Source: Alphaproteobacteria bacterium
GTDB taxonomy: Bacteria > Pseudomonadota > Alphaproteobacteria > Micropepsales > Micropepsaceae
Direction: 5' to 3'
DNA length: 64,000 nucleotides
NCBI GenBank assembly: GCA_013389115.1
Contig: JACADY010000031.1
Span: 1-64,000, forward strand
The position numbers and the translations under genes are program-made. Below the pieces are notes generated by a model. The model saw only the letters and a list, made by a program, of their open reading frames with translations, ran no database searches and had not been told where the DNA came from. Positions 18,501 through 34,965 of this stretch are shown piece by piece (the stretch's first letter is position 1; the number at the start of each line of letters is the position of its first letter).

Positions 18501-19101
18501 GTTCCGCGACGTGACGCTGAATCCGGACGGCTCCTATACCCTGTCCGGGCTTTTGCGCGGCCGACGTGGCACCGATGTCTTCGTGGACGGGCACGAGGCC
18601 GGCGAGTTGTTTGTCCTCCTCGATCCCGACGATGTCGAGACCATGGTCACCTCGCTCGGGGATCTCGATCTCCCCCGGTCCTGGAGAGCGGTTGGCTTCG
18701 GCACGATCTTCGAGGATGCCGAGACGCTGGTCGCCAGCCACACCGGCCGAGACCTCAAACCCTACGCGCCCTGGAACGTGCAGGCGGCTCTGACCGGCAA
18801 TCCGGCCAACATCAGCCTCTCCTGGGTCCGGCGGACCCGGATTGGTGGCGAGTTGAAGGACGGCACCGGCCTCGTGCCGCTCGGCGAGACTTCAGAGGCC
18901 TACGAGATCGACATCCTCTCCGCACCTGGCGGCGCGGTAAAGCGGACGCTCACCGCGACGAGCCCGAACGTCGTCTACGCCAATGCCGACATCCTCGCCG
19001 ACTTCGGTGCCGTCCCGTCGTCCCTGACCGTCACCGTCTTCCAGATCAGCGCCGTCGCGGGCCGCGGCTTCCCGCGCACCGTCACATTGGAGATCAACTG
19101 A
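15598..19101 (+). CDS. Tail-tip/central fibre protein (gpJ-like, GTA tail-hub type)
   Basis: A 1167-residue protein. The N-terminus is hydrophobic and Gly-rich (AILVAVGGAALGSAIGVGW), as in the pre-hub region of these proteins, followed by the conserved SSAYGASIPIGYGTLRMAGN and YSYFASFALSFGEGP segments. The middle (about 240-600) is beta-rich with repeated strands resembling a propeller. From about 600 the sequence turns into the hub domains with the ERVSVVYMDRGADYQQG segment, and LSGLLRGRRGTD lies near residue 980. This protein forms the tip and usually contacts the receptor. Gene end TGATG overlaps the next start. Confidence 0.9.
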   Translation: MAILVAVGGAALGSAIGVGWQAGWLVGSVVGSLLFPAKGQNITTEGPRLGDLTVSSSAYGASIPIGYGTLRMAGNMIWSSGIAEQQNVTRTRAGGKGGGGATQTSITYSYFASFALSFGEGPAEDVLRIWADGKLIYDKTGSSPDVAKPNLRFRFYPGNETQLPDPLIEAHVGAGRAPAHRGLCLIVFEDLALADYGNRIPNITAEITYRRAAEQPYQLIDFITTGEGGAFGSYQIDDLAVDWRRGYGYFLDSDVNAAEAGIRRFSLRTMKEDRQARMTDITAVAPNNFPSTLFCGEDGHLYVVTGSSNSRPILRVEPNALREVGRFGSTSSGLTNSTLRFVATTWMGMVSAYGPSGRVDFVLTGSLFDDVGLIRADTMGYVWGAGQSVTEPRVRGVIGGAVGEGFGDGWILGSGTSTNHGSLGLYRLRVSALAGYDGLTGQSLGVIFEKVATFSPSDVESGATGFYGSAGGLTYDTTDDSVIFQARISNGGSPGAIYTLKWRSDTGIVWKTIVPIQINYEGPYFGQSRLRGQRWTLMRGTRVIQLDTATGALVLNEIWPGAVSEGGAQVYDAVTDTHLVRGSQGWAKLFLNRGGGGGETLSGIVSDLCARAGLGLSDIDVADLGATVPGYVIGRQTTVRGAIEPLAQAYFFDAAESDDALRFRTRGRPPAATIDADLLLPLDERTGESWRERRRQEVELPERVSVVYMDRGADYQQGTQSEKRTSLPLPTMHSRNQASVELALALDATTAKQIAAKTLYSAWIERSAYEAELPSDWLHLDPTDVVDVVFASGSTFRTRITRLDVGADFSLAVKGVSETAATYVSNVAADGGSGKPVQIVGSQAATRLILPDLSLLRDTDDTGGSGSRIYYMMGGYGTTGWPGASLYRSADGTAWAQVGRSLSEAAWGATANALGTPTSPFATDETNSLTVFMTTGGERLESVTQDSMLSGANAALVLKANGEPEIIQFRDVTLNPDGSYTLSGLLRGRRGTDVFVDGHEAGELFVLLDPDDVETMVTSLGDLDLPRSWRAVGFGTIFEDAETLVASHTGRDLKPYAPWNVQAALTGNPANISLSWVRRTRIGGELKDGTGLVPLGETSEAYEIDILSAPGGAVKRTLTATSPNVVYANADILADFGAVPSSLTVTVFQISAVAGRGFPRTVTLEIN

Positions 19102-20381
19102 TGCCCAGCCCCAATCTGGCCGTGACCCATGTCGCGGCCGCCCAGAACCAGAAAGAGGTCACGATCAACGACGCAGTCGATGCCCTCGACAACGCCATGA
19201 ATCAGGCACTGTCGGTGGCGATGGCCGACGCCAACCTGACGCTGACTGGCACCCAAGCCAACCGTAACGGTCTGATCATCCTCACCGGCACGCTGACGGC
19301 CTCCCGGATCCTGACGCTGCCCGCCAATCACCGGCGGCTCGCGATCCGAAACGCCACCAATGGCGGCCAGGACGTTCGCGCCAAATATGCGGGCTCCGGC
19401 GCGGAGGTCGTCATCGTACCGGGCGCGACGGTGCTGGTTCAGGGCAATGGCGGCGATCTCTACGGGGTCGGCGGCGGCGCTGGCGCGCTGGGTGATCTCA
19501 CCGACGTCTCCATCGCCGGCGCCGCCAACGGCGACGTGCTCCAGTTCGATGGAGCCGCGTGGGGCGCCACAGGCGTCGGTATCTTCAACCGCGCTCTGCT
19601 GCCCTTCCGGGGTGCGCTGCTGCGACGCTCGACCAATTTCAGCGTCGCGACGACCGGCGTCTACGTCGCCTTGCCATGGCAAAGCGCCGAGTATGATAGC
19701 GGCGCTTTCTGGGATGCGGGCCAGCCCTCCCGCCTGACCATTCCCGCCGGAGTGACGAAGGTCCGGATCGTCGGCAACATCGAGTGGCAGACCTCGCCGA
19801 CCAGTCAGCTGGTCGAGGTGCGGAAGAACGGCAACAGCGTGCTGGGCGGCGGGTCCTTCATCGTGCGCGGCGACAGCGGCTACTCCAACCAGATGCGCAA
19901 CCTGTCGAGCGCGGTCCTGCCGGTATCGGCGGGCGACTGGTTCGAATTGGCCGTCTATGTCGGCACGACCGGGGAGCTGCGCGGCCTCGAGCGCACTTGG
20001 CTGGCAATCGAGGTCGTCGAGACTGCGGATGCGGCCGATCCCCCGGCCGACATCAGCGGTTACAAGGCCGGGAAACCGGCAGCGGACGAGGTGATCGTGC
20101 GGATTCCGATAGCCCGACGCACCCGGCTGAAGATTGATCTTGCCGGTAGCCATGCCAGTGCCGAGGTCGCGGCAACCGCGAGCGCGGATTTCGACATCCG
20201 GATCGACGGCGTGAGCAGCGCCACCATGCGCTTTGCCGCCGCCGCCACGAGCGCCACCTTCATCGCCGCCAGCGAAACCGTGCTGGAGCCCGGCCAGGTG
20301 CTCAGCGTGGTCGCGCCATCGACGCCCGACGCCACGCTCGCCGGGATCGGGTTCACGTTGGCCGGCACGCTGGTCCTCTGA
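19101..20381 (+). CDS. Tail fibre/appendage-like protein
   Basis: A 426-residue protein beginning MPSPNLAVTHVAAAQNQKEVTIN, an opening found in tail-associated proteins that follow the hub in alphaproteobacterial phages. The first 140 residues have a Thr/Leu-rich beta pattern (LTLTGTQANRNGLIILTG), then a Gly-rich linker, and two C-terminal beta domains (about 165-315 and 320-426). The second of these has jelly-roll-like alternation (TRLKIDLAGSHASAEVAAT). A receptor-binding role is inferred from position and fold pattern. There is no recognisable enzyme motif. Its start overlaps the tail-tip stop by one base. Confidence 0.68.
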   Translation: MPSPNLAVTHVAAAQNQKEVTINDAVDALDNAMNQALSVAMADANLTLTGTQANRNGLIILTGTLTASRILTLPANHRRLAIRNATNGGQDVRAKYAGSGAEVVIVPGATVLVQGNGGDLYGVGGGAGALGDLTDVSIAGAANGDVLQFDGAAWGATGVGIFNRALLPFRGALLRRSTNFSVATTGVYVALPWQSAEYDSGAFWDAGQPSRLTIPAGVTKVRIVGNIEWQTSPTSQLVEVRKNGNSVLGGGSFIVRGDSGYSNQMRNLSSAVLPVSAGDWFELAVYVGTTGELRGLERTWLAIEVVETADAADPPADISGYKAGKPAADEVIVRIPIARRTRLKIDLAGSHASAEVAATASADFDIRIDGVSSATMRFAAAATSATFIAASETVLEPGQVLSVVAPSTPDATLAGIGFTLAGTLVL

Positions 20382-20399
20382 TCGCTGCCGGATTGCGTC

Positions 20400-20690
20400 A
20401 TGGACAAGGAACCAGACAGCGGGGCGCTCATCGCGCTGCCGGCCGCCGATTTTGAAGCCCTGCTGGAGCGCGCGGCCGAGACGGGTGCGCGGCGCGCCTT
20501 GCACGAGGTCGGCCTCGATGGCCAGGATGCCGCCGAGGACATCCGCGATCTTCGCTCGTTGCTCGCGGGTTTCCGCCTCGCGAAACAGACGGCCGTCCAG
20601 ACCGCGGTGCGGCTGATCACCACCGGCGTCCTGCTCGCCCTGATGGCCGGCATCGCCATTAAGCTGAAGCTCTTCGGGCCGACGCCTTAA
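20400..20690 (+). CDS. DUF6127 small membrane protein
   Basis: A 96-residue protein with a soluble acidic N-terminus and one hydrophobic segment at about 72-90 (LITTGVLLALMAGIAIKL), followed by a short basic tail. It starts at an ATG 18 bases after the fibre gene and ends just before a terminator-like hairpin. DUF6127 proteins occur at this place in alphaproteobacterial prophages. Being next to the lysis genes with one membrane span, it may contribute to holin function, but this is only an inference. Confidence 0.65.
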   Translation: MDKEPDSGALIALPAADFEALLERAAETGARRALHEVGLDGQDAAEDIRDLRSLLAGFRLAKQTAVQTAVRLITTGVLLALMAGIAIKLKLFGPTP

Positions 20691-20717
20691 CCCCTCCGCC
20701 CGAGTTTCGTGACCACC

Positions 20718-20748
20718 GCCCGCCCTCGCTGAGGGGCGGGCTTTTTTT
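20718..20748 (+). terminator. Rho-independent terminator after the structural genes
   Basis: GCCCGCCCTC pairs with GAGGGGCGGGC (one bulged G) around a GCT loop, followed directly by seven T residues at 20742-20748. It separates the morphogenesis operon from the lysis cassette. The lysis gene ATG is only 18 bases further, so partial readthrough or a weak internal promoter must serve it. Confidence 0.88.
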
Positions 20749-20765
20749 GTGCCTGGAGACCTGCG

Positions 20766-21440
20766 ATGACGACCATGACCTACAAACACTGGCGCGACGT
20801 GCCCGAGCGCTCGTGGCGCTGGCCGAACTTCTCGCCCGACGAAATCGCCTGCCGGCGCAGCGGCTCCCTGCGGATCAACGAGGAAGCGCTCGACAAGCTC
20901 CAGGCCCTTCGCGACCGGCTGGGCAAGCCGCTGATCGTCCGCTCGGCCTACCGCAGCCCGGCGCACAACCGCGCCGTCGGTGGCGCGCCGCGCTCAAAGC
21001 ACCTCGACGGCACCGCCTTCGACATCGCCATGGCGAACCACGATCCGGTCGCCTTCGAAGCCGCCGCCCGAGCCGTCGGCTTCCTCGGCTTCGGCTACTA
21101 TCCGCGCTCGGGCTTCATGCACATCGATCTCGGCCCGGCTCGGCAATGGGGCGAGCGTTTCCCGGTGCGGGCGACGGCGTTCGCCGCAGAAACGGCGCCC
21201 GTGCGGGAGGTCTTGGCCGACAGTCGCACGATGAAGGGCAGCGGCGCAGCAGGCGTGGCGACGCTTGGCGCCGCGGGCGTCGAGGTGGCGCAGAACGTCC
21301 TGGCGGAAACCCAGACCGCGATCCTGCCGCTCGTGCCCTATCTCGACAACTTGCGCTGGGTGTTCATCGCCGTGGCGCTCGCGGGCCTTGCCGTGACGAT
21401 CTACGCCCGCATCGACGACTGGAAGCGGGGGCGTCGATGA
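20766..21440 (+). CDS. Endolysin: M15-type peptidase with C-terminal membrane anchor
   Basis: A 224-residue protein. Residues about 15-135 are a D-Ala-D-Ala-carboxypeptidase-like M15 domain, with zinc ligands in SKHLDGTAFDIAM (His and Asp) and GFMHIDLG (His) and the usual VRSAYRSPAHN loop. It would cleave peptide crosslinks in peptidoglycan at lysis. The C-terminus has a hydrophobic segment at about 198-216 (WVFIAVALAGLAVTIYA) and a basic end, so the enzyme is probably held on the inner membrane until release. It lacks an N-terminal signal. The stop overlaps the next ATG (ATGA). Confidence 0.9.
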   Translation: MTTMTYKHWRDVPERSWRWPNFSPDEIACRRSGSLRINEEALDKLQALRDRLGKPLIVRSAYRSPAHNRAVGGAPRSKHLDGTAFDIAMANHDPVAFEAAARAVGFLGFGYYPRSGFMHIDLGPARQWGERFPVRATAFAAETAPVREVLADSRTMKGSGAAGVATLGAAGVEVAQNVLAETQTAILPLVPYLDNLRWVFIAVALAGLAVTIYARIDDWKRGRR

Positions 21441-21694
21441 TCGCTGCTCTGTTCACCGGGATCGCCGCCGCCCCGTGGATGCGGGCGGCCCTACGCTACG
21501 GCGCCATCGCACTCGCGGTGCTCCTGTTCCTGCTCGCGCTCCGGCGCTCCGGCGAGCGTGCTGGCCGCCTCGCCGAACGCCTCGAAACCTCGGAGAAGAC
21601 CAATGACGTCCAACGCCGGATGCTCGATGCGGCGGCTCGCCGTCCTCGCGATCGTAACGATCTCGCTGACCGGCTGCGCGACGGTCGCTTCTGA
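21437..21694 (+). CDS. Inner-membrane spanin (Rz-like) candidate
   Basis: 85 residues from the ATG at 21437, which overlaps the endolysin stop by 4 bases. A transmembrane segment is at about 20-37 (YGAIALAVLLFLLAL), followed by a charged helical stretch with coiled-coil potential (RSGERAGRLAERLETSEKTN). This is the N-in, single-span, coiled-coil layout of Rz proteins that help fuse inner and outer membranes at the end of lysis. The strongest support is the lipoprotein encoded in the overlapping frame. It could also be read as a small holin; I judge spanin more likely. Confidence 0.72.
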   Translation: MIAALFTGIAAAPWMRAALRYGAIALAVLLFLLALRRSGERAGRLAERLETSEKTNDVQRRMLDAAARRPRDRNDLADRLRDGRF

Positions 21695-21866
21695 TCTTCG
21701 CGTCACGACCGTCTGCCCACCCGTTGTCGAGTATAGCCGCGAGTTCCAGGCGCGCGCAGCCGACGAGCTCAATCTGCTGCCGGAGGCGTCGGCTATCGCC
21801 GAAATGCTCGCCGACTACGGCGTCATGCGGGATCAGGCACGGGCATGTGGGATGCGGCTCGATTGA
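21603..21866 (+). CDS. Outer-membrane spanin (Rz1-like lipoprotein) candidate, overlapping the inner spanin
   Basis: 87 residues from the ATG at 21603, or 79 from a second in-frame ATG at 21627. The second gives a textbook lipoprotein signal: MRRLAVLAIVTISLTGCA, with lipobox ISLTGC. The mature part is about 63 residues with a VCPPVVEYSREFQ segment. The gene starts inside the Rz-like frame in another reading phase, the arrangement known for Rz/Rz1 pairs. An outer-membrane lipoprotein paired with a membrane-anchored coiled-coil partner next to an endolysin supports a two-component spanin. The 21627 start is the more probable. Confidence 0.75.
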   Translation: MTSNAGCSMRRLAVLAIVTISLTGCATVASDLRVTTVCPPVVEYSREFQARAADELNLLPEASAIAEMLADYGVMRDQARACGMRLD

Positions 21867-21964: not shown

Positions 21965-22165
21965 ATGAACCCAAAATATCCCAACATAACCGTGCAGCTG
22001 ACTGGTCAGGATGGGAATGCCTTCATGGTTCTTGGTCTCTGTCAGCGCGCTGCTAAGGAGGCCGGGCTTTCCAAGGAGGAAATCGACTCGTTCTTGCAGG
22101 AGGCGACGAGCGGAGACCACGATCACCTTCTGCAAACGGCGATGCGCTGGTTCAACTGCCAATAG
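21965..22165 (+). CDS. Small conserved protein of unknown function
   Basis: 66 residues, beginning MNPKYPNITVQLTGQDGNAF. It has a beta strand then two helices (LGLCQRAAKEAGLSKEEIDSF and a His/Asp-containing end). Similar short proteins of this style occur in many bacteria and plasmids near restriction and conjugation genes; their function is unknown. The gene has its own AT-rich upstream region and its 3' end overlaps the convergent hsdR gene by 14 bases. It is at the seam between phage and defence island and belongs clearly to neither. Confidence 0.7.
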   Translation: MNPKYPNITVQLTGQDGNAFMVLGLCQRAAKEAGLSKEEIDSFLQEATSGDHDHLLQTAMRWFNCQ

Positions 22166-25124
22166 AAGCCGAGCCGACTTTTGACGCAGTGTCCGCATAG
22201 GTTGCCGCGAAGATCGTCTCGGAAAGCCACTTCTTGAACGAGGGGTTGTCGCTGAACTGCTTGAACAGTTCCGTGTGGTCAGACAGCAGTTCGATCACGG
22301 CACGTTCAAGCGCCTTGTCGTGCTCGATACGCGCGTTCTGCTTGTCCGAGTTCTTCATGGCGTTCTGATACGCCTTGTCGGCCGACACCTTAGCCGGAAG
22401 CTCCTCCGCGATGACCTTCCCGATTTTGTCCCTGTCCTTCCAATCGATGTTGCCGAACATCTCGTTGAAAGTCTTGAGGATGTTGCTCAGCAGATCGAGC
22501 TCGGGCTCGGGTTTGCGGCCGCCGCCAGCCGCTGGCACGGGCCCGATTTCGGAGTCTTCATCAGGCAGCGCGATGGCCATGGTTGCCTGTGCTTCGACGC
22601 GGTAGCTGTCCATGTCGATCGCTTCGAGGATCCCCTTGGACAGATCCTGCTCCTCAGGCGCCGGCAGCTTGGGCGTCAGGAAGTTGAGGAAGATAGATAG
22701 CTTCTCCCAATCCGCATTGCTGTAGGGAAGGATCGCGGCCAGAAAGCCATATGTCCTCGTGAACGCCTTCGCCTTACCCTTGAAGTCGACTTGCCCATCC
22801 TCATCGAGATCGGTCTTGTAGACGGCGACACAGGCGTCGAGAATCGGGTCGAGCTTGTCCCGGTCTGCACCGCCGAGGTAGAGCGCCACCAAGTCTTCCA
22901 CCTGGTCCCATGCATAAACCTGATAGCCATCAAGCGCAGCCTTCAGGTCGTGGAGCTTGTTGGGGTCGGTTTCCTCGCTGAGTATCGTGGTCCGGTAATA
23001 TGGCTCGAAGGAAGCCTTGATGGCCTCGAAATCGTTCATGAAATCGAGCACGAACGTGTCGTGCTTCTGCGGATGCGCCCGGTTCAAGCGCGACAGCGTT
23101 TGCACCGCCTTCACGCCGGACAGCGTCTTGTCCACATACATTGTGTGCAGCAGCGGCTCGTCATAGCCGGTCTGGAACTTGTCCGCGACGATCAGGAACC
23201 GGTACGGGTCCTTCTGGATCAGTTCCTCGATCTGGTTGCTTGGAAAGCCGTTCAAGGTCGCTTCAGTGACCTTCTGGCCGCCGTATTCATGCTCGCCCGA
23301 AAAGGCGACGATGGCCTGATAGGGGCTTTTGCGCTCCTTCAGATATTCCTGGAAGGCGTGGAAGTACTGGATTGCACGCTGGATCCCGTTGGTGATGACC
23401 ATCGCCCGGGCCGCGCCGCCGATCTTGCGATGCGCCATGACCAGGTCGTGGAAGTGATCGACCATGATCTCGGCCTTCTTTCGGATCGCATGGTCATGGG
23501 ATTCCACATACTTGCGCAGCTTCTTCTGTGCCCGCTTGGTGTCGAACTTGGGGTCGTCCTCCACCGTCTTCATAAGCCGATAATAGCTGTCGACCGGCGT
23601 GTAGTGTTTCAGCACGTCGAGGATGAAGCCCTCCTGAATCGCCTGCTTCATCGTGTAGCTGTGGAAGGGTACGTGCTTGATCTTGTCCCCTTGCGGGACC
23701 GGCGCACCGAAAACCTCCAGGGTCTTGTTCTTTGGCGTGGCGGTGAACGCGAAATAGCTGGCGTTCGGCAGCACCTTCCGCGCCTCCATCAGACGGTTGA
23801 TGGCGTCCTCGACCGTCTCCTCTTCCTCCTCGGCGCCATTCGCGGCGAGCGCGATGTTCATCTTCGCTGCGGTCCGGCCACCCTGACTGGAATGAGCCTC
23901 GTCGATGATGATGGCAAAGGTTCGCCCGCGATGCTCGTCGCCGATCTCGTCGAGGATGAAGGGGAACTTCTGGACCGTCGTGATGATGATCTTCTTGCCG
24001 GCCTTCAGGAAGGCCCGCAGGTCGCCAGACTTTTCGGCGTGTCCCACCACGGATGAAACCTGCGCGAACTGTTTGATCGTATCGCGGATCTGCTTGTCGA
24101 GAACACGGCGGTCGGTGACCACGATGACGGAGTCGAAGGTCGTCTTGCCGCCGGTCTCCAGCCCGATCAGCTGGTGAGAGAGCCAGGCAATCGAGTTGCT
24201 CTTGCCCGAACCGGCCGAGTGCTGGATCAGGTAGCGCTTGCCCGCCCCCTTGGCTTCGGCGTCGGCCAGCAGCTTGCGCACCACGTCCAGCTGATGGAAG
24301 CGCGGGAAGACCTGCTTGGGCGGCTTCTTCTTGCCGCGCTCGTCGACCTCCTCGACCACCTGGGCGTAGTTTTCCAGAATGTCGGTGAGGTTCCGCTTCG
24401 TCAGGTATTCCTTCCAGAGGTAGTCGGTCTTCAGCCCGTGGGGGTTCGGCGGGTTGCCCGCGCCATCGTTCCAGCCCTTGTTGAACGGCAGGAACCAGGA
24501 CGCCTTGCCCTTCAGGTGCGTGCACATCCGCACCTCGTGGTCGTCCACGGCGAAATGGACGACGCAGCGGCCGAACTGGAACAGCAGCTCCTTCGGATCG
24601 CGGTCGCGCTTGTACTGCTCGACCGCGTCCTCGACCGTCTGCTTGGTCAGACTGTTCTTCAACTCGAAGGTGGCGACCGGCAGGCCGTTGATGAACAGCG
24701 CAGCGTCGAGCGACAGCTTGGTCGCGTCCTTGGAATAATGCAGTTGGCGGGTGACGCTGAAGACGTTGGCGGCAAACAGCGCCTCGGCCTTCGCGTTCCC
24801 CGGCGTCGGCGTGCCATAGAACAGCTCCACCGAGCCCGGGCCGTGCTTCACGCCGTTGCGCAGCACGTCGATAACACCGCGCTTGGCGATCTCGCCCTGC
24901 AGCCGATGCAGGAATTGCAGGCGCTTCGGGCCGTCCACGCCGATCCCCAGCGCCTCCACAGCCTGTGGCTGCGTAGCGTTCAGGAAGTCGAACAGCTTTG
25001 CGACATCAAGAGCGTGGTCACGGTCGAAATCCGTCGAGTCGCCCGCGACATAACCCGCCTCGTCGACCAGCGAACGAACGATCAGGGCTTCGAGGCCTTT
25101 TTCACTGGTGTCAGTCGTCGGCAT
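22152..25124 (-). CDS. hsdR: Type I restriction endonuclease, R (motor/nuclease) subunit
   Basis: 990 residues from the ATG at 25124, a normal HsdR length. The N-terminal nuclease domain has the PD-(D/E)XK signature: Asp140 followed by FELK at 153-156. The SF2 translocase follows, with Walker A SAGSGKS at about 303-309 and DEAH at 408-411 (IIIDEAHSSQGG). The C-terminal helical part docks with the methyltransferase. It cleaves unmethylated DNA after translocating between sites. The gene overlaps the 3' end of hsdS by 14 bases. A longer reading starting at 25250 uses only sequence inside hsdS and is rejected. Reading frame appears intact. Confidence 0.96.
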   Translation of the reverse strand: MPTTDTSEKGLEALIVRSLVDEAGYVAGDSTDFDRDHALDVAKLFDFLNATQPQAVEALGIGVDGPKRLQFLHRLQGEIAKRGVIDVLRNGVKHGPGSVELFYGTPTPGNAKAEALFAANVFSVTRQLHYSKDATKLSLDAALFINGLPVATFELKNSLTKQTVEDAVEQYKRDRDPKELLFQFGRCVVHFAVDDHEVRMCTHLKGKASWFLPFNKGWNDGAGNPPNPHGLKTDYLWKEYLTKRNLTDILENYAQVVEEVDERGKKKPPKQVFPRFHQLDVVRKLLADAEAKGAGKRYLIQHSAGSGKSNSIAWLSHQLIGLETGGKTTFDSVIVVTDRRVLDKQIRDTIKQFAQVSSVVGHAEKSGDLRAFLKAGKKIIITTVQKFPFILDEIGDEHRGRTFAIIIDEAHSSQGGRTAAKMNIALAANGAEEEEETVEDAINRLMEARKVLPNASYFAFTATPKNKTLEVFGAPVPQGDKIKHVPFHSYTMKQAIQEGFILDVLKHYTPVDSYYRLMKTVEDDPKFDTKRAQKKLRKYVESHDHAIRKKAEIMVDHFHDLVMAHRKIGGAARAMVITNGIQRAIQYFHAFQEYLKERKSPYQAIVAFSGEHEYGGQKVTEATLNGFPSNQIEELIQKDPYRFLIVADKFQTGYDEPLLHTMYVDKTLSGVKAVQTLSRLNRAHPQKHDTFVLDFMNDFEAIKASFEPYYRTTILSEETDPNKLHDLKAALDGYQVYAWDQVEDLVALYLGGADRDKLDPILDACVAVYKTDLDEDGQVDFKGKAKAFTRTYGFLAAILPYSNADWEKLSIFLNFLTPKLPAPEEQDLSKGILEAIDMDSYRVEAQATMAIALPDEDSEIGPVPAAGGGRKPEPELDLLSNILKTFNEMFGNIDWKDRDKIGKVIAEELPAKVSADKAYQNAMKNSDKQNARIEHDKALERAVIELLSDHTELFKQFSDNPSFKKWLSETIFAATYADTASKVGSASIGS

Positions 25125-27252
25125 CGGCCCCCTCCATCGCTTCGGCGTCGCTGTCTTCCAACGCGTCGTCCAGCGCCTCGTCCTCGGTGATCGGTTCAGC
25201 AGCGATCTCGACATGGCGCACGTCCAGCTTGCCAGTAACGATATCGGCAATCAGGCGTTCGCGGTACTCGCGTATCAGCGTGATCTCGTCCTGAGCCTTC
25301 TCGATTGCCTTGTCGAAAGCGGCAGTCTCAGCCGCGATGTGATCGAGGATGGCCTTCTGTTCGACAAGCTCAGGTGGAAATGCCACATGAAGGGTGCCTA
25401 GACGCCCTTCTGAAATCGCGGGATACGCGACGCCGATCGATGCCCGGATGACGCGCTCGATGAACGTGCTGCTCTGAAGGACGTAGCCAAGCAGCCGTGG
25501 CTCCACGCTTTTAACGGGCCGCAGCACGGCGAAACCCGTCGATGCGATCAGGTCGGGCCAATCGTCCTCGATGAAGTAGACCGCCTTCAGATAGGTCCGG
25601 ACGGTTGAGAGGATAGTGTCGCCTTTCTGGACTATCTGGCGTGCGCGGGACGGAGCATCTTCGAACTTCATGCGCTCCGGTTTCGCAGTCAAAAATCCAG
25701 TCCCGACGCAGCTGATGTCGAGGTACTCGAACTCATATTCCGGTGGAGTCCTGTCACTGAGCGACTTAGCACGTTCGCGAAGCCAATGCTTGAGCGGCTT
25801 GACCTCCCAATGCGCCGGAACCTCGGGCATCCAGTCGATGCCGGTGGGCTTCATCGGGGCGTCGGGGTTCAGACCGCGCGTGACGGCGCGGTTGATGATC
25901 GCCTGCTTCTGCTCGTTCAACAGCCCGATCAGCCGCCGCTTGTTGCGGATCAGGCGGCGAACCTGCACGTCCTTGGCACGGAGAAAAGTGACCATGCGCT
26001 CCTGCTCTTCGCGCGGCGGGCAGGGAAACGCGATGTCCAGGAACTTGTCCGGGTAGAGACGCAGGCGCGATGAACGAATTCCCGTAGACCGGCAGATATA
26101 CTCCCAACGCAGCATCGGCGTGCGGAGAAGGTAATCGAGGTAGGCAGGTAGGAAATCGCGGCCGTTCAGGGGGCGGTAAACCCCATAGGCGGGGCTGACG
26201 ATACCGATATCCTTCGAGACGCCAAGCGCCGACATCCATGCCCACATCGTGTTGATGACGATATCGTTCGGCCTCGCGAGCTTGTGGCCGACATAGGATT
26301 CGGCCTTAAACATCGTGACGTTCTTCTGGCTGCGAGGCGTCACGCCGGTGGTGTGCGAGACAGAGAGCAGTTCTTCTTCGCCGGTCTGGGAGCGTTCGTC
26401 GATCTCGCGGAAGAAATACTTTCCGCGCTTCTCAGACCAGTGTGCTGGGATTTCTCCAAGCCAATGCACACGCGCAGGCCGATAGCTAGGGTAGCGGCTC
26501 GGTTCCGCATCTGCTTCAATCGGAGTGTTGGGTGCTTGCGTTTCGGAAGTTTGTGCTTCGGCAATCATTGGCTGCTCAAATAGAGATGGCTGGGGATCGT
26601 TGTGCGATGGCGCGGCGATAGCCGCAGGCGACTGCCGAGCCGCCCAGCCCGGAATCTGCGCATTATTCGGGGCCTGCACGGCCTCGATGGGCTCTCCGAA
26701 CAGCAGGAAGTCGGGTATGGCCAGCGGCTCGATGAACCGCAGGCTCTCCGCCTCATCGCCCTTAAGCTGCTCGCGCAGCTCCATCAGCAGCCGTCCAAGC
26801 ACGTTCATGCCGATGAGCGTGCCGTCCGGCTGCTCCGTGGCGCCCCAGAAATCCTTGCGGCGGACCTTCTTCTCGACGATCGGCATGTCCGCGGTGGACA
26901 GCAGAAGCTTGCCGAAGGTCTGCCAGTTCTGCGCCAGCTTCACGCGCAGGCACCAGCGCATGATCTTCACCCGCACCGCATCCCAGTCCGGTCGGGTCTC
27001 CGACCGGAACGGCTTGCTCCGCATCTTTGCGGTCATGGGGCTGGGGTCGTCGATGATCTGGCGCTGGACGTCCGGCCGGCGGGGGAAGCGGCAGGCCTGG
27101 TAGAGCGCCTCCGATGTGCGGATCCGCACGCCGTTCAGGACAATTGGGAAGCCCGGCGCCATGTTCGACAGCCCGCCGAAGCGCTCGTTCGTCTTGAGGA
27201 AGACGGCGCTCTCGGCTGGGTGGTATGTGCGAACCTGGCTGGGCTGGGCCAT
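25111..27252 (-). CDS. hsdS: NADAR-HsdS fusion: type I specificity subunit with an ADP-ribose-processing domain
   Basis: 713 residues from the ATG at 27252. Residues about 8-165 match the NADAR/YbiA fold: FGGLSNMAPGFPI near 25, TSEALYQACRF near 47, RVKIMRWCLRVKLAQN near 94, and FWG...GMNVLGRLLMELR near 136-160. A linker (about 175-250) rich in Pro, Gln and Ala follows. Residues about 255-690 are a standard HsdS with two target recognition domains, each opened by HW (AHWSEKRGK and AHWEVKPLK), and two long conserved helices. The acidic C-terminus is DDALEDSDAE-like. NADAR enzymes hydrolyse ADP-ribosyl or related N-glycosidic bonds; fusion to the DNA-recognition subunit suggests a DNA-directed activity, which is inference. 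Confidence 0.9.
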   Translation of the reverse strand: MAQPSQVRTYHPAESAVFLKTNERFGGLSNMAPGFPIVLNGVRIRTSEALYQACRFPRRPDVQRQIIDDPSPMTAKMRSKPFRSETRPDWDAVRVKIMRWCLRVKLAQNWQTFGKLLLSTADMPIVEKKVRRKDFWGATEQPDGTLIGMNVLGRLLMELREQLKGDEAESLRFIEPLAIPDFLLFGEPIEAVQAPNNAQIPGWAARQSPAAIAAPSHNDPQPSLFEQPMIAEAQTSETQAPNTPIEADAEPSRYPSYRPARVHWLGEIPAHWSEKRGKYFFREIDERSQTGEEELLSVSHTTGVTPRSQKNVTMFKAESYVGHKLARPNDIVINTMWAWMSALGVSKDIGIVSPAYGVYRPLNGRDFLPAYLDYLLRTPMLRWEYICRSTGIRSSRLRLYPDKFLDIAFPCPPREEQERMVTFLRAKDVQVRRLIRNKRRLIGLLNEQKQAIINRAVTRGLNPDAPMKPTGIDWMPEVPAHWEVKPLKHWLRERAKSLSDRTPPEYEFEYLDISCVGTGFLTAKPERMKFEDAPSRARQIVQKGDTILSTVRTYLKAVYFIEDDWPDLIASTGFAVLRPVKSVEPRLLGYVLQSSTFIERVIRASIGVAYPAISEGRLGTLHVAFPPELVEQKAILDHIAAETAAFDKAIEKAQDEITLIREYRERLIADIVTGKLDVRHVEIAAEPITEDEALDDALEDSDAEAMEGADADD

Positions 27253-28286
27253 CAGAAGTCTTCCTGTGCCAGCATCGCCATGAACCTGCGCAGCGACGTG
27301 TCGCTGTTCGTCGTGCGGGGGAACAGCGGATACCAAGGGTCCCCCGCCCACAGCGCCAGCGGCGCATTGTTGGGGCAGTTTCTGAAGGTCACGATCAGCG
27401 AGCCGAAACCGAGCGTTTCAAGGATCATGTTGCCCAGCGGCCGCTGGTATTGATTTAGATGCGGGCACATCTGCCGGATGCGCACGCCCGCCTTCAGGAA
27501 TTCCGATTCCAGCAGCTGGCGTCCGGCATCGCTGGAGAAGATGCCGTTTCCGCCGACATGGCCTGCAGTGCGCAGATTGGGCTGATAGCGCATTGCCCCG
27601 ACATAGGCTTTCACGCCCTCGTCGTCTGGAATCGCGACCGGCCGTAGAACATCGGACGTAGTGGTGTGAGCCCTGCGGTCCTCAAGCTCAATCGCGCGCC
27701 ACCACGTCAGGTCGATTGACTTTCCGGCGGCCTTTGCCGCCTCCTTGATTTTTCCATTGGCGTAGTACTGGCCGCCGCTATGCAGCGCGATCGTGATGAC
27801 GTGCACCTTCGCTTCGGCCGGAGCCTGCTCAGCGATCCATGTTTCGAGATCGCGCCTGACACGGTTCCCGGTGAAGATGGCGTCATCCAGATACACGAAG
27901 GCGTGGGGAGCTGCGCCGCAGTCGGCAGCTTCGAACCCACACTGCTTCTCCAACACTTTGCTGAACAGCGCGAGCATCTCCTTCTGGCTCGCGCCGCCGC
28001 CCTGAATGTCGAGGAACTTCACGCCCTTCCAGAAGGCACATGGGTCCTCGCCGACGAGCTTTTCGGTTTGGAATAGTCCCGCCAAAAACTTTCTCGTTCC
28101 ATCGCGGGAGAAGTAGGTCTGCTTCAGGACATGGTCCATTTCCCGCAAAATTGGCAGCTGAACTGCGGCGTCGAACTGACCGACCCAACGCTCGATACGT
28201 TCTGGCGTCGGGGCTTCCCCATCAGCCTCACGATAGTCGGCCGTCGTCGCTGCGATGGACGCGATGAGATCGTCCCGCTCAGCCAT
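27252..28286 (-). CDS. Phosphoribosyltransferase-fold protein of a conflict system
   Basis: 344 residues from the ATG at 28286; an upstream extension to 28511 looks non-coding and is rejected. The segment HAFVYLDDAIFTGNRV, near residue 150, is the PRPP-binding motif of type I phosphoribosyltransferases: four hydrophobics, DD, three residues, TG. The N-terminal part is helical (REMDHVLKQTYFSRDG), and the C-terminal third carries cysteines and an aromatic-rich stretch. It resembles PRTase-fold proteins found in bacterial conflict loci, whose substrates are unknown. It overlaps the NADAR-HsdS start by one base (ATGA), implying coupled translation and a joint role, perhaps making or removing a ribosyl-type adduct. 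Confidence 0.75.
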   Translation of the reverse strand: MAERDDLIASIAATTADYREADGEAPTPERIERWVGQFDAAVQLPILREMDHVLKQTYFSRDGTRKFLAGLFQTEKLVGEDPCAFWKGVKFLDIQGGGASQKEMLALFSKVLEKQCGFEAADCGAAPHAFVYLDDAIFTGNRVRRDLETWIAEQAPAEAKVHVITIALHSGGQYYANGKIKEAAKAAGKSIDLTWWRAIELEDRRAHTTTSDVLRPVAIPDDEGVKAYVGAMRYQPNLRTAGHVGGNGIFSSDAGRQLLESEFLKAGVRIRQMCPHLNQYQRPLGNMILETLGFGSLIVTFRNCPNNAPLALWAGDPWYPLFPRTTNSDTSLRRFMAMLAQEDF

Positions 28287-28327: not shown

Positions 28328-30124
28328 TCAAAGCCCCTCGAAGTAGGTCTTGATCTTCGCCGCCATCAGCTTTCGGCGCGCTTCGAGGAAGTCTCCAAAA
28401 TCGGGAATTTCCCCATCGAGCAGCGCTTCGGGCAGGCAGCTCATGCGGAGATTGGCCCGCATCTCGGCCATGTCCGTGATGCCGCCGTACTTCCTTGGCC
28501 CGCCGTTGCACTGCTCGGCAAGCTCGGCGAAGTAGACCTCGGGCGCTTTGTCGCCGATGGCGATGTTGATCTCGCTCTGGGCCAGGACAAAGTTGGCGAT
28601 CTGGTTGTAGCGCCCCCGCGTCAGCCCCTGGTTCTTCAAGTGGTTGCGCGGGTAGACGTGATGCACGTCGCTGCGGTTCAGCAGCAGGTCGCGCACGGTG
28701 ATATCCCGCGACAGGAAGCCGAGATCTCCCAACTTCACCTGCGCGGCCTGGTAGACGAGGAAGTAGGGGCTCGATGCCGAGGAGGTATCCATCTCCTGCG
28801 GGAGCAGCGTGGACCAGAAGCTCTCAGGGAGCTCCGCATCGATCACCGCCTCGCAATAGGTCGCGAGGCCACGCGCTTCGATCTGGCGGATATCGAAGTC
28901 GAACGCCGTCTCCGGGCTGCCGGAGTAGCGTCCCCTTAGCAGCGACATGACATACCAGCGTCTTACCAGCCGCTCGATGTCGGCAGCCGGCATGCCTTCC
29001 GCACGGCCGCGCAGGTAGAGGATGTAGGCGAAGTTGATGGCATTCTGGCTACGGATGAGGTTCGAAGTGATGAACCCGGCCGAGCGCAGAATCATCGTCA
29101 GACGGTCGAAATGGGTCTTGTTGATGAAGTTGAGAACGCCGGTCTTCAGGCGGGCGAACGCCTCCTCGGCGACGGCTTCCTCATACTGCTTGGTCTCGAA
29201 GTTCCGCCCTGATAGCAAGGCCACGAGATCCTGCAGCTTGCCGCGCTGGAACTCGGACGTGAATGCCACGCGCAGCATGTCGGTGTAGGAAGGGTCGTAG
29301 AGGTCGTCGTTGACGTCCTTCAGCCACCGCATTTTCGGGAGGAATTCGGACGAGGCGAACGCCTTGTCGCCCTTCTCAATGCGCGAGAGGAACTCGGGCG
29401 CGACGGCCAGATGGCAGAAATAGTCGATGGCCTTGCGCAGCATGTTGCCGCCGTAGGTGTCGTTGGCCGCGATCTTCGACATAGCGAAGTCCGCCTGGCT
29501 GAGCGACGCACCGGCCGAGTTCACGCGGATGAAGATCTCGGTCACGGTTTCGATGTCGAGGTCTTCGGCCAGTTCGATGATGCCGACGTGGTTGTTGATG
29601 ATCTTCCGGACGCGTTCCAGGATGCGCGAGACCTGCTTGCGGTCGGCATCGGGGTTACGTTCGGAATACTCGTCTGTCAGCTCGGTGAGGCTGGCATCCG
29701 GCGAAAAGACCGCCGCGAGATCGGGAATCCAGGCCGCGTCCTTGCGGATTGCGGGGTTCGAAACCTCGAACCGCTCATCAACCGGATGAAATGCGATCCT
29801 GATTCGGACGGTCTCGTAGTCCTTGGTCAGAACCTCTTGTCCGAGCAGCGCCGCCATCAGCGCCGTCACGCGCTGCTGCCCGTCGATCAGGATGCGCTTG
29901 CCGGACGATGTGGTACCGTCCTTCAACCGGACGGATGGATTTCGCCAGGCGATGAGGTATCCGACCGGATAGCCCTGATAGAGGGAGTCAAGCAGGTTCC
30001 GGACCTTCGTCGCATCCCACACGAACGGACGCTGGATCTCAGGGATCGCAATCTCACCGGACTTCACCCAAGTCAGAAGCGTTTCGATCGGATGGGGAGT
30101 GACGGAGTAGCGCTGGGTGGCCAT
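28328..30124 (-). CDS. DUF262/GmrSD-type restriction nuclease (single chain)
   Basis: 598 residues. The N-terminal DUF262 half has [11 protein letters not shown] at 27-37, IDGQQR at 80-85 and FIRVNSAG at 198-205, the NTP-binding ParB/sulfiredoxin-like motifs of GmrS-type proteins. The C-terminal DUF1524-type HNH nuclease has [12 protein letters not shown] at about 486-497 with an Asn in NQIANFVL after it. Single-chain relatives cut DNA carrying modified (for example glucosylated hydroxymethylated) cytosine. It starts 2 bases after the hsdM stop, so it is in the operon. All key residues appear present. Its target could be modified phage DNA that evades the type I enzyme. Confidence 0.9.
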
Positions 30125-30126
30125 TC

Positions 30127-32259
30127 TTAGTGCCCTCCCATGAGGACGTCTTCGAGCAAGCCCTCCGTCTCTTTCTCCAGCGCTCGGATATCGGCCTCGA
30201 TTTCATCGAGTGTGCGCAGCGGCTGCGGCTTGTAGAAATGCCGCGTGAACGAAATTTCGTAACCAATCACCGTTTTCGAGGCGTCGATCCAAGCGTCGGG
30301 GGCATGCGGCAATACCTCGCGCCGGAAGAAGGCTTCGATGCCGCCGTCTTCGAGGAACGGTACCTGTTCGGTATCCCTGAGCTCGGTGTCAGGCTCATAC
30401 TCCACGACCGACGCTTTGCCGCCAATCGTCGTGTGATAGCTGCCATACAGCGCTTCCTGCGTCGCATCCGACCCCGCCTTCGGCTTCGAGGTCTTGCGGA
30501 TCACCGGTTCCGCTGCGGCATCTTTCTGGCCGAGCGCCGACATGAGCAGCTTCTGCCGCTTGGCCGTCATACGGAGGCCAAGCGAGCTGGCGGCATCCTC
30601 CACCTCGGCAACGAAGGCATTGAAGTCCAAATGCGGGCCCGGACCACGGGCTTCCGCCACCGCCTCGATGGCGCGGACGAGATCGCTTTCTCCCGCTTCG
30701 GAGCACGTCTTGCGGAATCGCCGTAAGGCGCCTTCCGTCAGCTCCGTCTTCAAGCGCAAGGGACGCTCGACCGTGATCTTCCAATAGCCGAACGCATCGT
30801 TTGGGAAGACCTTGGACGTCTCGTCCTCTTTCTGGTGGAGGAACGCGTCACAGATGCGTTTGATATCGTCAACGCCGAGTTCGCAGTTCTTTTTCCCGAG
30901 ATTTTTGCGGAGCGGCTTGAACCAAGCGGTGGCGTCAATGAGCTGGACCTTGCCCTTGCGGTTCTCGGCCTTCCGGTTGCTGAGGACCCAGATGTAGGTC
31001 GCGATGCCGGTGTTGTAGAAAATGTTCAGCGGTAGGGCGATGATGGCTTCCAACCAATCGTTCTCGATGATCCAGCGGCGGACGTTGCTTTCACCTGAAC
31101 CCGCATCCCCCGTGAAAAGCGAGGACCCGTTATGGACCTCGGCGATCCGGCTCCCGAGGGGAGACGCCTTCTTCATCTTGCTGAGCATGTTGGCCAGGAA
31201 CATCATCTGGCCATCGATCGACCGGGTAATCAGGCTGAACTCAGGATCGCCGCCGTGCTCAATCACGAAGCGCGGATCAAGCAGTTCCTTTTTCCCTCCC
31301 ATGCGCTCCAAGTCGGTCTTCCAAGACTTACCGTAGGGAGGATTGGACAGCATGATGTCGAACTCGCGGGACGGGAACGCATCCGCCGACAACGTAGATC
31401 CGAATTTCATGTTTTCGGCCTCAACGCCTTCTCCCTTCAGGATCAGGTCGGCCTTGCTGATGGCGAATGTTTCCGGGTTGACTTCTTGTCCATAGAGGTG
31501 AACGGAAACTTCCTTCCCGTGGTCGGTTGCCAGCTTGATCAGCGTCTCTTCGGCGACAGTGAGCATGCCGCCCGTGCCGCAAGCGCCGTCGTACACGAGG
31601 TATGTGCCCGACTGGATGTGGTCGGCGATTGGCATGAAGATGAGGTAGGCCATGAGCTCTACCACGTCGCGCGGCGTGAAGTGCTCGCCTGCCTCCTCAT
31701 TGTTCTCTTCGTTGAAGCGGCGGATGAGCTCCTCGAAGATCGTGCCCATAGAATGGTTGTCGAGGCCGGGAAGCCGGACGCTCCCGTCTTGGTGGAGGAC
31801 CGGCTTTGGGCTCAGGTTAACTGAGGGGTCCAGAAATTTTTCGAGCAGGAAACCGAGGACATCTGCTTCGACGAGCGTGGGAATCTGATTGCGGAACTTG
31901 AACTTATCCAGCACTTCCTGAACGTTCGGCGAGAATCCGTCGAGGTACGCCTCGAAATCGGCCTTCAGCTGCTGCCGTCGCGCTCTGGAGGTCAAATCGC
32001 GCAGGCGGAACTGAGATGTGTTGTAAAATGCCTCTCCCGATGCTTGGCACAGAGCGGCATGCTGGTTCGCGACCCCCGCCTTATCGAGCTGGGTCTTCAT
32101 GGAGAGCACCGCTTCCTTCGTCGGCTCCAGCACAGCATCGAGACGACGAATAACGGTCATGGGCAGAATGACATCTCGGTACTTCCCCCGGACGTAAACG
32201 TCTCGAAGGACATCGTCGGCAATATTCCAGATGAAGTTGCTGATATTCAAATCGCTCAC
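30127..32259 (-). CDS. hsdM: Type I restriction-modification methyltransferase, M subunit
   Basis: 710 residues from a GTG at 32259, preceded by GAGGGG; a longer reading into the upstream gene is unlikely. The N-terminal helical HsdM domain is followed by the N6-adenine methyltransferase: [13 protein letters not shown] at 191-203, AdoMet motif DGACGTGG at 224-231, and catalytic NPPY at 306-309. The C-terminal 150 residues (about 560-710) extend beyond short HsdM forms, with [23 protein letters not shown]. It methylates host recognition sites, with HsdS giving specificity. The operon order is unusual because DUF262 and PRTase genes lie between hsdM and hsdS. Confidence 0.96.
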
Positions 32260-32269
32260 GTGCCGCCCC

Positions 32270-32470
32270 TCACGCCTTGTTCTGCGCTGCTTTTTTCTGC
32301 TGATCGATCCAGCTATCGAGGTCCGACCGCTTAAACCGCCATGCACCGGCGACCTTAAAGCCCGGCAGATCCCCGCGCTTGGCGAGCCTGTAAACGGTCT
32401 TCTCGTCGACGTTCAGGTAACCTGCCACGTCCCTTACGGTCATGGCCTGGTCAGGCGTGTCCGCCATCAT
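32270..32470 (-). CDS. AlpA/excisionase-like helix-turn-helix regulator
   Basis: 66 residues from the first of two adjacent ATGs (32470 or 32467), with GAGGG upstream. The core MTVRDVAGYLNVDEKTVYRL...FKVAGAWRF is a MerR-type winged helix of the excisionase family that binds DNA through TVRDVAGYLNVDEKTVYRLA. It ends 10 bases before the hsdM start and is therefore the first gene of the restriction operon. Such small regulators often precede hsdM and may delay restriction until methylation is established. A longer reading to 32896 is not supported. Confidence 0.85.
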   Translation of the reverse strand: MMADTPDQAMTVRDVAGYLNVDEKTVYRLAKRGDLPGFKVAGAWRFKRSDLDSWIDQQKKAAQNKA

Positions 32471-32661
32471 CCAGCCCTCACTGTTTTTCTGACCATAACA
32501 GGAGAACGCAGGGCAAACTAGTCCATTCTGGGCGCTCCAAGGTTGGCAAGGGGTAAAGTCGTAACCCAGGAATCCGTCTCGCAAGCTGAACGTCGTCTTT
32601 CCGATCCAAAGATGGGCCGAAGGAGCAAGAGGGAGACCAGTGCGACGTGAAGGCCCAGGAA

Positions 32662-32689
32662 AAGGGTCGGCCAACAGGGGCCGACCCTT
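32662..32689 (-). terminator. Terminator downstream of the second AlpA-like gene
   Basis: AAGGGTCGGCC and GGCCGACCCTT form a perfect 11-bp stem around a 6-base loop. On the minus strand the hairpin is followed by TTTTCC, as for an intrinsic terminator, 17 bases after the stop of the 32706-32921 gene. It insulates the restriction operon from upstream transcription. Confidence 0.8.
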
Positions 32690-32705
32690 GCTCGTCCTCG
32701 GATTG

Positions 32706-32921
32706 TTAGGCTTCCGCCTGCTGAGTGTGACCCGGGTCGGAGGTGCTGGAACGGATAATCGACTGCTCGTATTCCTCGACGTCGGACAGGCGATAGACCA
32801 CCCGGCCGCCCACCTTGAGGAACTTCGGCCCTTCACCGGTCCAACGCCACCGCTCAAGTGTGCGATGGCTGATCCCCCAGCGCACGGCCAGTTCAAGTTG
32901 GTTCATGCATGTTGCCTTCAT
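32706..32921 (-). CDS. Second AlpA-like DNA-binding protein
   Basis: 71 residues from the ATG at 32921, with an AAAGGAC ribosome site 8 bases upstream. The core NQLELAVRWGISHRTLERWRW...GPKFLKVGGRVVYRL is a helix-turn-helix of the phage AlpA/excisionase type, common next to integrases on mobile elements. It may act as an excisionase or regulator of the island. It is followed by an intrinsic terminator, so it is transcribed separately from the AlpA-like gene in front of hsdM. Extension further upstream (to 33035) lacks a better start. Confidence 0.82.
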   Translation of the reverse strand: MKATCMNQLELAVRWGISHRTLERWRWTGEGPKFLKVGGRVVYRLSDVEEYEQSIIRSSTSDPGHTQQAEA

Positions 32922-33603
32922 TTTCGTGTCCTTTCGTCCTGGCAAGTTGGAATGCGACACGACGAAGGCGTGGCCGGAAAACACTATCAAGGTAATACTG
33001 GCGGGAGCGCCAAACACCGAGCGCTGCGCTGCCATTCTTGAACAGAGAATTTCTGCGGTGGCGAAGATTTACTTAATAATACGAAGGCGTTCTGGCGCAC
33101 TGTGGGGCATACTTCGAGCGAGTTTGTCGAAGATTCCTTTCCCTCCGCCACTATCCCATTGCGAACCGCGAGCGGCGCGCCTTGAGCCTCGAAATTTCTT
33201 TTGGTTTCAAAGGGGTTTGCGAGAGCTGACCGAACCTCAGAGACTGGCGCGACGTCAATTTCAGGTCTCTGAACGGCTTACGTCTCTTTCCGAGCGAACC
33301 TCGTCCGACTTAGTTCGATCACAGAAAATTCTGTATTTTCAATCGATTGATTATTTCGCCTGAGCTAACTTTGTGCGGCATGGTAATCGCTAGGCATGCA
33401 AACAGAGATATCCGAGGTAGGCGTTTCGCGGCGCAAGGTGACGCAGTGCGGTGGGGACCAACCCCATGCACCATTAGAGACCTTCACGAAGGAACCTTGG
33501 CGTTCGCCTCGTCTGTACGAACGAGTAACGAGCGCCGAGGAACGAACAAATTTTTTGGAGCAACCCGAACTGTCTGTTTTGATCGCCGGAGAAGGCATAG
33601 CGA
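32922..33603. other. Gene-poor, lower-GC stretch in the defence island
   Basis: This 682-base interval has no convincing gene. Short open frames on both strands lack ribosome sites and recognisable sequence. It is visibly less GC-rich than the rest, for example near 33060-33080 and 33325-33360. It must contain the promoter of the AlpA-like gene starting at 32921 and the 3' region of the nuclease gene ending at 33604. No repeat, tRNA or att-like sequence was identified. Confidence 0.5.
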
Positions 33604-34923: not shown

Positions 34924-34965
34924 GTTGACCCAGCGATGGTCGCCTCTGCCGTAACGCTCGGAAAA

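What the first reader, a model, noticed from the sequence alone, without database searches (positions are those of the whole stretch)
26750..27252. NADAR domain fused to the N-terminus of a type I specificity subunit
The first 165 residues of HsdS carry NADAR-type motifs (FGGLSNMAP, SEALYQACRF, GMNVLGRLL) and are joined to a normal two-TRD HsdS. NADAR members studied so far act on ADP-ribosylated substrates, including ADP-ribosyl-guanine in DNA. Placing such an activity on the DNA-binding subunit would guide it to specific sequences; this is inference.
Basis: partly seen in the sequence, partly recalled or inferred. Interest (0 to 1): 0.85.

Follow-up and report, generated by a model that had tools for sequence, protein, structure and literature searches.

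The report
NADAR–phosphoribosyltransferase defence module built into restriction
A recently described two-gene anti-phage module (a phosphoribosyltransferase plus a NADAR sugar-removing enzyme) has been wired into a type I restriction-modification system by fusing the NADAR enzyme to the DNA-recognition subunit, and the same wiring recurs in many bacteria and in a second defence system, which links two kinds of immunity and suggests how the little-understood module may work.

Summary
In detail: residues 18-164 of the HsdS protein (window 25111-27252, minus strand) are a NADAR domain by Pfam, NCBIfam and structure (best fold matches: E. coli YbiA and a NADAR bound to ADP-ribose). Both catalytic acids are kept; the usual lysine is arginine in all 83 family members compared. 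The fusion is real and conserved: 44 other loci show it. The NADAR always sits directly after a PRTase-CE gene, and the two exceed the curated cut-offs for the two proteins of DS-32, a two-gene anti-phage system. The module occurs free, fused to HsdS inside complete type I operons, or fused to HmaB, the methylase of the Hma defence system; a tree needs several fusions or fissions. The otherwise variable NADAR-HsdS linker keeps a motif like the replication-clamp binding motif (Q-x-S-L-F; 40 of 45). Recognition domains are swapped while NADAR stays nearly identical, so NADAR does not depend on one DNA sequence. Most likely it is the eraser/antitoxin of the PRTase, docked on host DNA through the restriction complex and replication clamp. 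ADP-ribose as substrate is unproven; a phosphoribosyl adduct fits at least as well. New variant of a known kind.

The parts
26686..27252 (-). NADAR domain, residues 1-189 of the fusion protein (catalytic E48 and E127; R55 in place of the usual Lys)
   Evidence: PF08719 E=1e-20; NF053876 (DS32_2) E=2.4e-82 over cut-off; AF2/Foldseek match to YbiA and 8bau
26497..26685 (-). Variable linker between NADAR and HsdS, residues 190-252
   Evidence: low conservation in alignment A1; composition rich in P/A/Q/S
26578..26592 (-). Q-P-S-L-F, beta-sliding-clamp-binding-like motif in the linker (residues 221-225)
   Evidence: pattern Q..LF in 40/45 linkers, best pattern of shuffled linkers mean 14.6, max 19; absent elsewhere in the 45 proteins and from 19 HsdS homologues without NADAR
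25111..26496 (-). HsdS part with two target recognition domains, residues 253-713
   Evidence: PADLOC Specificity_I E=4e-102; PF01420; TRDs swapped between relatives
27252..28286 (-). PRTase-CE, phosphoribosyltransferase-like partner (344 aa), PRPP loop DDAIFTG at residues 134-140; stop overlaps NADAR start
   Evidence: PF24390 E=1.7e-59; NF053875 (DS32_1) E=3.4e-128, 427 bits over cut-off 250; DD and loop G 81/81; AF2 pLDDT 92.9
28328..30124 (-). DUF262/GmrSD_N-type protein with DGQQR and HHxxP (HNH-like) motifs; present in 17 of 42 complete NADAR-HsdS operons
   Evidence: PF03235 E=9.4e-30; motifs; counts
30127..32346 (-). HsdM methyltransferase (start uncertain), motifs DGACGTG and NPPY
   Evidence: HsdM_N, N6_Mtase; PADLOC MTase_I E=6.7e-254; motifs
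22152..25124 (-). HsdR, with E-x-K nuclease motif, GSGKS and DEAH motor motifs; overlaps the end of hsdS by 14 nt
   Evidence: HSDR_N, SWI2_SNF2, T1R_D3-like; motifs

Best explanation
This is a DS-32-type defence module (PRTase-CE + NADAR) integrated into a type I restriction-modification operon, carried next to prophage lysis genes. Proposed mechanism: the PRTase uses PRPP to put a (phospho)ribosyl group on a nucleobase, in phage or replicating DNA, RNA or a nucleotide. The YbiA-like NADAR hydrolyses that N-glycosidic adduct and so acts as antitoxin/eraser, much as NADAR does for DarT1. Fusion to HsdS, plus a clamp-binding-like motif in the linker, holds the eraser on DNA bound by the HsdMS complex and at host replication forks. 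Host DNA is kept clean while infecting DNA, or a cell whose restriction complex is disabled, suffers the PRTase. Shown: domains, intact active-site and PRPP-loop residues, strict pairing, recurrent fusion, motif conservation, TRD swapping. Inferred: direction of chemistry, substrate, antitoxin role, clamp binding.
For: NADAR identity, fold and catalytic acids: E48 and E127 in 83/83. PRTase-CE immediately upstream in every locus not cut by a contig edge, with NADAR starting within a few bases of the PRTase stop in nearly all HsdS-type loci. PRPP loop DDxxx[TS]G with DD and G in 81/81 and a confident model whose best fold matches are uracil and xanthine-guanine PRTases, although with weak scores. 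Both proteins exceed NCBIfam cut-offs for DS32_1 and DS32_2, which NCBIfam names as anti-phage proteins; the DefensePredictor paper reports validated systems with NADAR and PRTase domains (PMC13092281). Free-standing pairs on plasmids and chromosomes. Complete operons: HsdM and PRTase upstream in 42/42 loci with upstream sequence, HsdR downstream in 43/44. A second host: NADAR fused to an HmaB-type methylase in 8 loci. Tree: HsdS fusion needs 8 changes, at least 4 by strong branches; HmaB fusion 4, at least 3. Clamp-like motif in 40/45 linkers. Jumbo-phage-sized viral contigs carry NADARs of this family without the PRTase nearby, as expected if NADAR alone protects. NADAR as antitoxin of a base-modifying toxin is precedented by DarT1-NADAR (PMC11543638).
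Against: No biochemical data for either protein. The name DS-32 and its gene content come from NCBIfam; the paper's text does not spell it out and its supplement could not be read. PRTase fold matches are weak (no E<=0.001), so base-transferase chemistry is not shown. The active-site Lys is Arg in the whole family; in E. coli C7 NADAR the K95R change kept in vitro hydrolysis but lost antitoxin rescue (PMC11543638). A clamp motif is only five residues; binding is untested and 5/45 lack it. The free-standing pairs work without HsdS, so docking is not essential to the module.
Confidence: 0.4

Rival explanations
1. Guard model, as in PrrC/EcoprrI: the PRTase is a latent effector held inactive by contact with the NADAR on the restriction complex. 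When a phage antirestriction protein disturbs the complex, the PRTase is released and stops the cell. NADAR catalysis would be secondary.
For: PRTase gene lies inside the hsd operon between hsdM and hsdS in all complete loci; the antitoxin-like partner is fused to the RM subunit; PRTases occur as effectors with DprA-like antitoxins and in type III retrons (PMC9122126; PMC12548924).
Against: NADAR catalytic acids are invariant in 83/83, which mere binding would not require; free-standing pairs exist without RM.
Confidence: 0.25
2. One reading: HsdS carries a sequence-guided ADP-ribosyl-guanine hydrolase that removes ADP-ribose from DNA at the recognition site.
For: NADAR fold with catalytic acids; NADARs, including YbiA, hydrolyse guanosine-ADPr in vitro (PMC11125620); covalent link to a DNA-binding subunit.
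Against: No ADP-ribosyltransferase found among neighbours scanned; partner is a PRPP-loop PRTase. TRDs swapped while NADAR is constant. Adenine-stacking Tyr not conserved, D86 position is Arg and Lys to Arg throughout.
Confidence: 0.12
3. Soluble signal model: the PRTase makes a nucleotide-like signal on infection that activates HsdR or the DUF262 protein, and NADAR destroys it.
For: PRTases act naturally on free bases; soluble ADPr-derivative processing is the role proposed for many phage NADARs (PMC9503650); jumbo-phage NADARs without PRTase.
Against: No sensor or effector domain is shared by the free-standing, HsdS and HmaB contexts; tethering the degrader to DNA has no obvious purpose.
Confidence: 0.13
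4. NADAR-HsdS is a passive fusion: neighbouring genes merged by loss of a stop codon and NADAR adds nothing to restriction.
For: NADAR and HsdS would be adjacent genes in such an operon; fusions also seem to be lost (L033, L034, L043 in the tree).
Against: Fusion kept in 45 proteins over several phyla and formed more than once, also with HmaB; linker keeps Q-x-S-L-F while the rest varies.
Confidence: 0.1

Closest known systems
DS-32 (NCBIfam NF053875 + NF053876, anti-phage PRTase-like + NADAR pair)
   Same: Both proteins exceed curated cut-offs, adjacent and in the same order as in free-standing pairs
   Different: Here NADAR is fused to HsdS and the pair sits inside a type I RM operon; free-standing pairs have no RM neighbours
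DarTG1 (DarT1-NADAR toxin-antitoxin)
   Same: Two-gene pair with a NADAR next to a transferase that could modify nucleic acid
   Different: No DarT; transferase is a PRPP-type PRTase; NADAR has the YbiA-type Glu and Arg in place of Lys
YbiA (riboflavin intermediates N-glycosidase)
   Same: Closest solved relative by sequence (2.7e-28 with profile) and fold; same catalytic Glu pair
   Different: Lys to Arg; below the TIGR02464 cut-off (63 vs 73.7 bits); tied to a PRTase and RM or Hma proteins
Type I restriction-modification (HsdMSR)
   Same: Complete HsdM, two-TRD HsdS and HsdR with motor and nuclease motifs
   Different: NADAR at the HsdS N terminus, PRTase gene and DUF262 gene inside the operon
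Hma defence system
   Same: Carries the same PRTase-NADAR module, with NADAR fused to the N terminus of HmaB
   Different: Different methylase, helicase and ATPase set; not type I RM
PRTase effectors of type III retrons and PRTase-DprA (ShosTA-like) pairs
   Same: PRTase-type effector paired with a controlling partner in phage defence
   Different: Partner is NADAR rather than RT/msDNA or DprA; only weak similarity between the PRTases
PrrC in the EcoprrI locus
   Same: A putative toxic effector gene embedded in an hsd operon
   Different: PRTase instead of anticodon nuclease; RM subunit carries a fused enzyme

Membership tests
NADAR superfamily (YbiA subfamily) | NADAR/YbiA fold | tested here: met
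   AF2 pLDDT 91.7; Foldseek 2b3w E=2.9e-8, 8bau E=9.2e-7; PF08719 1e-20
NADAR superfamily (YbiA subfamily) | Catalytic acids (E43/E88 and E125/D171 equivalents), Glu type for YbiA | tested here: met
   E48 and E127, 83/83, aligned to 8bau and YbiA
NADAR superfamily (YbiA subfamily) | Active-site Lys (K50/K95 equivalent), conserved in most but not a defining residue of the fold | tested here: not met
   Arg in 83/83; K95R retains hydrolysis in vitro in C7 NADAR but not rescue
NADAR superfamily (YbiA subfamily) | De-ADP-ribosylation or N-glycosidase activity | not testable with these tools
   needs purified protein
DS-32 | PRTase-like protein over NF053875 cut-off | tested here: met
   427 bits vs 250
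DS-32 | NADAR protein over NF053876 cut-off, adjacent gene | tested here: met
   274 bits vs 240; start overlaps PRTase stop
DS-32 | Anti-phage activity | not testable with these tools
   needs a phage challenge
Type I RM specificity subunit | Two TRDs and conserved regions, hsdM and hsdR in operon with catalytic motifs | tested here: met
DarTG1 | DarT ADP-ribosyltransferase partner | tested here: not met
   no ART family in the operon or the neighbours scanned
PRPP-dependent type I phosphoribosyltransferase | PRPP loop (two acidic residues, then xxx[TS]G) | tested here: met
   DDAIFTG; DD and G in 81/81
PRPP-dependent type I phosphoribosyltransferase | PRTase fold | tested here: inconclusive
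   Best matches are UPRT and XGPRT but E>=3e-3 and TM low; PF24390 E=1.7e-59
Beta-clamp-binding protein | Conserved QxSLF motif in a flexible segment | tested here: met
   40/45 linkers
Beta-clamp-binding protein | Binds DnaN | not testable with these tools
   needs a binding assay

The most novel reading that the evidence does not exclude
Reversible base (phospho)ribosylation is a third DNA modification run by a restriction complex: a PRPP-dependent writer and an HsdS-tethered, clamp-docked NADAR eraser mark self and non-self at or behind the replication fork, alongside methylation. The same cassette is plugged into Hma.
Probability: 0.15. Interest if true: 0.92.

Novelty: new variant of a known kind. 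Interest (0 to 1): 0.64.

Why it matters
The chemistry of PRTase effectors and of most NADARs in phage defence is unknown. Recurrent fusion of the same NADAR to the DNA-recognition or methylating subunit of two unrelated defence systems, with a conserved clamp-like motif, points to DNA at the replication fork as the place of action and gives a direct test: is PRTase toxic, what adduct does it make, does NADAR remove it. If true, restriction systems would carry a second, sugar-based layer of self/non-self marking or a guarded toxin.

Tried and rejected
Reading the 1220-aa NADAR partner as unknown: rejected, it is HmaB. Loss of catalytic residues: rejected for both acids; only Lys to Arg. Chance or sequencing fusion: rejected by 44 further loci. 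Clamp motif as a general HsdS feature: rejected, 0 of 19 NADAR-less HsdS homologues. RNA element in the operon: none in Rfam; no tRNA in the window. Strong structural homologue for the PRTase: none at E<=0.001. ShosT resemblance: appears only at rank 50 with low probability, not used as evidence. A pairwise comparison with a YbiA sequence partly retyped by hand is not relied on. Papers describing NADAR-HsdS or NADAR-HmaB: none found in the open-access library; the 2012 NADAR classification paper is not held.

Full report
Observation. The protein at window 25111-27252 (-) is 713 aa. Its start codon overlaps the stop of the upstream gene (TGATG). Residues 18-164 are NADAR (PF08719, E=1e-20) and 8-189 match NCBIfam NF053876 (E=2.4e-82, above cut-off); 253-682 match type I specificity subunits (E=4e-102). 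The AlphaFold2 model of residues 1-201, made from 43 sequences, has mean pLDDT 91.7. Its only significant PDB matches are YbiA (2b3w, E=2.9e-8) and the P. nicotianae NADAR with ADP-ribose (8bau, E=9.2e-7).

Active site. By alignment to 8bau and YbiA, E48 corresponds to E43/E88, R55 to K50/K95, E127 to E125/D171, W90 to W89, R94 to R93 and W136 to W133. Across 83 family members E48, R55, K76, R87, W90, E127 and W136 are invariant. The Lys to Arg change is family-wide. In E. coli C7 NADAR the K95R change kept in vitro hydrolysis but did not rescue from DarT1 (PMC11543638). The Tyr that stacks on adenine in 8bau is not conserved, and the Asp that holds the adenine-side ribose is Arg, as it appears to be in YbiA. 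This leaves room for a substrate without the adenosine half. That YbiA acts on phosphoribosyl-amine intermediates of riboflavin synthesis is established knowledge, reflected in the name of TIGR02464.

The real unit is a pair. Directly upstream is a PRTase-CE gene (27252-28286; PF24390 E=1.7e-59; NF053875 'phosphoribosyltransferase-like anti-phage protein' E=3.4e-128). Of the 82 loci examined, only two lack the PRTase, and both are cut by a contig edge. The PRPP loop keeps DD and G in 81/81. The model is confident (pLDDT 92.9); its best PDB matches are uracil and xanthine-guanine PRTases, with weak E-values. NCBIfam calls the two proteins DS32_1 and DS32_2; the DefensePredictor paper reports validated systems with NADAR domains and a PRTase (PMC13092281), but its text does not name DS-32 and its supplement could not be opened.

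Three contexts. (A) NADAR fused to HsdS: 45 loci besides the window, one of them the same genome met twice. Of the 44 from genome contigs, HsdM and PRTase lie upstream in all 42 with upstream sequence, HsdR downstream in 43, and a DUF262 protein in 17. (B) NADAR fused to the N terminus of a long methylase-type protein in 8 loci; in the two examined this is a DUF1156 protein, HmaB, next to HmaA and HmaC. (C) Free-standing pairs in 29 loci with no conserved neighbours, also on plasmids of Methylobacterium, Vibrio and a Klebsiella record. A PRTase+NADAR tree needs 8 changes for the HsdS state (at least 4 by strongly supported branches) and 4 for HmaB (at least 3), so fusion and fission recur. The direction of each change is not determined.

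Linker. Conservation falls to about 0.33 in residues 201-220, yet an unbiased search for three-letter patterns finds Q..LF in 40 of 45 linkers; the best pattern of any kind in shuffled linkers averages 14.6 and never exceeds 19. Among 16 mutually dissimilar linkers 12 have it. It is absent from the rest of these proteins and from 19 HsdS homologues without NADAR. QxSLF resembles the bacterial sliding-clamp binding motif (own knowledge). HmaB fusions have similar motifs near the C terminus, and several free-standing NADARs end in one (for example QINMFDV). Binding is not shown.

Setting and TRD swapping. The window from 16.7 to 33.3 kb aligns at 93-96% with Chelatococcus locus L022 except for 25269-26563, apart from one short matching piece inside. 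That interval is the recognition-domain part of HsdS, where identity drops to 35% and 22% while NADAR is 98%. Downstream of hsdR lie phage tail and endolysin-type genes, and similar operons occur in IMG/VR contigs L129 and L130. So the operon looks like prophage-borne cargo whose specificity is exchanged while NADAR stays the same. A role for NADAR tied to one DNA sequence is therefore unlikely; a role tied to the complex remains possible.

Mechanism. Best reading: PRTase is a base-(phospho)ribosylating toxin or effector and NADAR removes the product, as in DarT1-NADAR but with PRPP-type chemistry; fusion and clamp-like motif place the eraser on host DNA. Orphan NADARs of this family without a PRTase in contigs of 49 to 485 kb, several of jumbo-phage size, are what one would expect if NADAR alone counters the effector, although other uses are possible. 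None can be excluded by sequence.

Novelty. NADAR, PRTase-CE, DS-32, type I RM and Hma are known. The integrated form, its recurrence in two systems and the clamp-like motif were not found in the open-access papers searched; older non-open work and protein databases may list the domain combination.

Noticed in passing
window 28328-30124 (-): DUF262/GmrSD_N protein with DGQQR and HHxxP motifs inside the hsd operon; such proteins act as modification-dependent nucleases elsewhere. Present in 17 of 42 complete NADAR-HsdS operons, so it may sense a mark made by this system.
   Followed up: partly
window 19101-21866 (+) and 32270-33035 (-): Phage tail-fibre, endolysin-type peptidase and AlpA/excisionase-like genes border the operon on both sides; similar operons appear in IMG/VR contigs L129 and L130, suggesting prophage-borne cargo.
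   Followed up: partly
L104, L106, L143-L148: Large viral contigs (up to 485 kb, also Dolichospermum phage Dfl-JY45) encode NADARs of this family but no PRTase nearby: possible counter-defence enzymes.
   Followed up: partly
L057, L059, L068, L077, L080, L089, L093, L100: NADAR fused to the N terminus of an Hma-type (DUF1156) methylase (family checked in L057 and L059), with PRTase-CE upstream; most carry a clamp-like motif near the C terminus of the methylase.
   Followed up: partly
L047, L052, L054, L055, L062: Free-standing NADARs with a C-terminal extension that looks like helix-hairpin-helix DNA-binding repeats (seen by eye, not scanned).
   Followed up: no
window 33604-36101 (-): Two or three ORFs upstream of the operon without informative Pfam or PHROG matches.
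   Followed up: no
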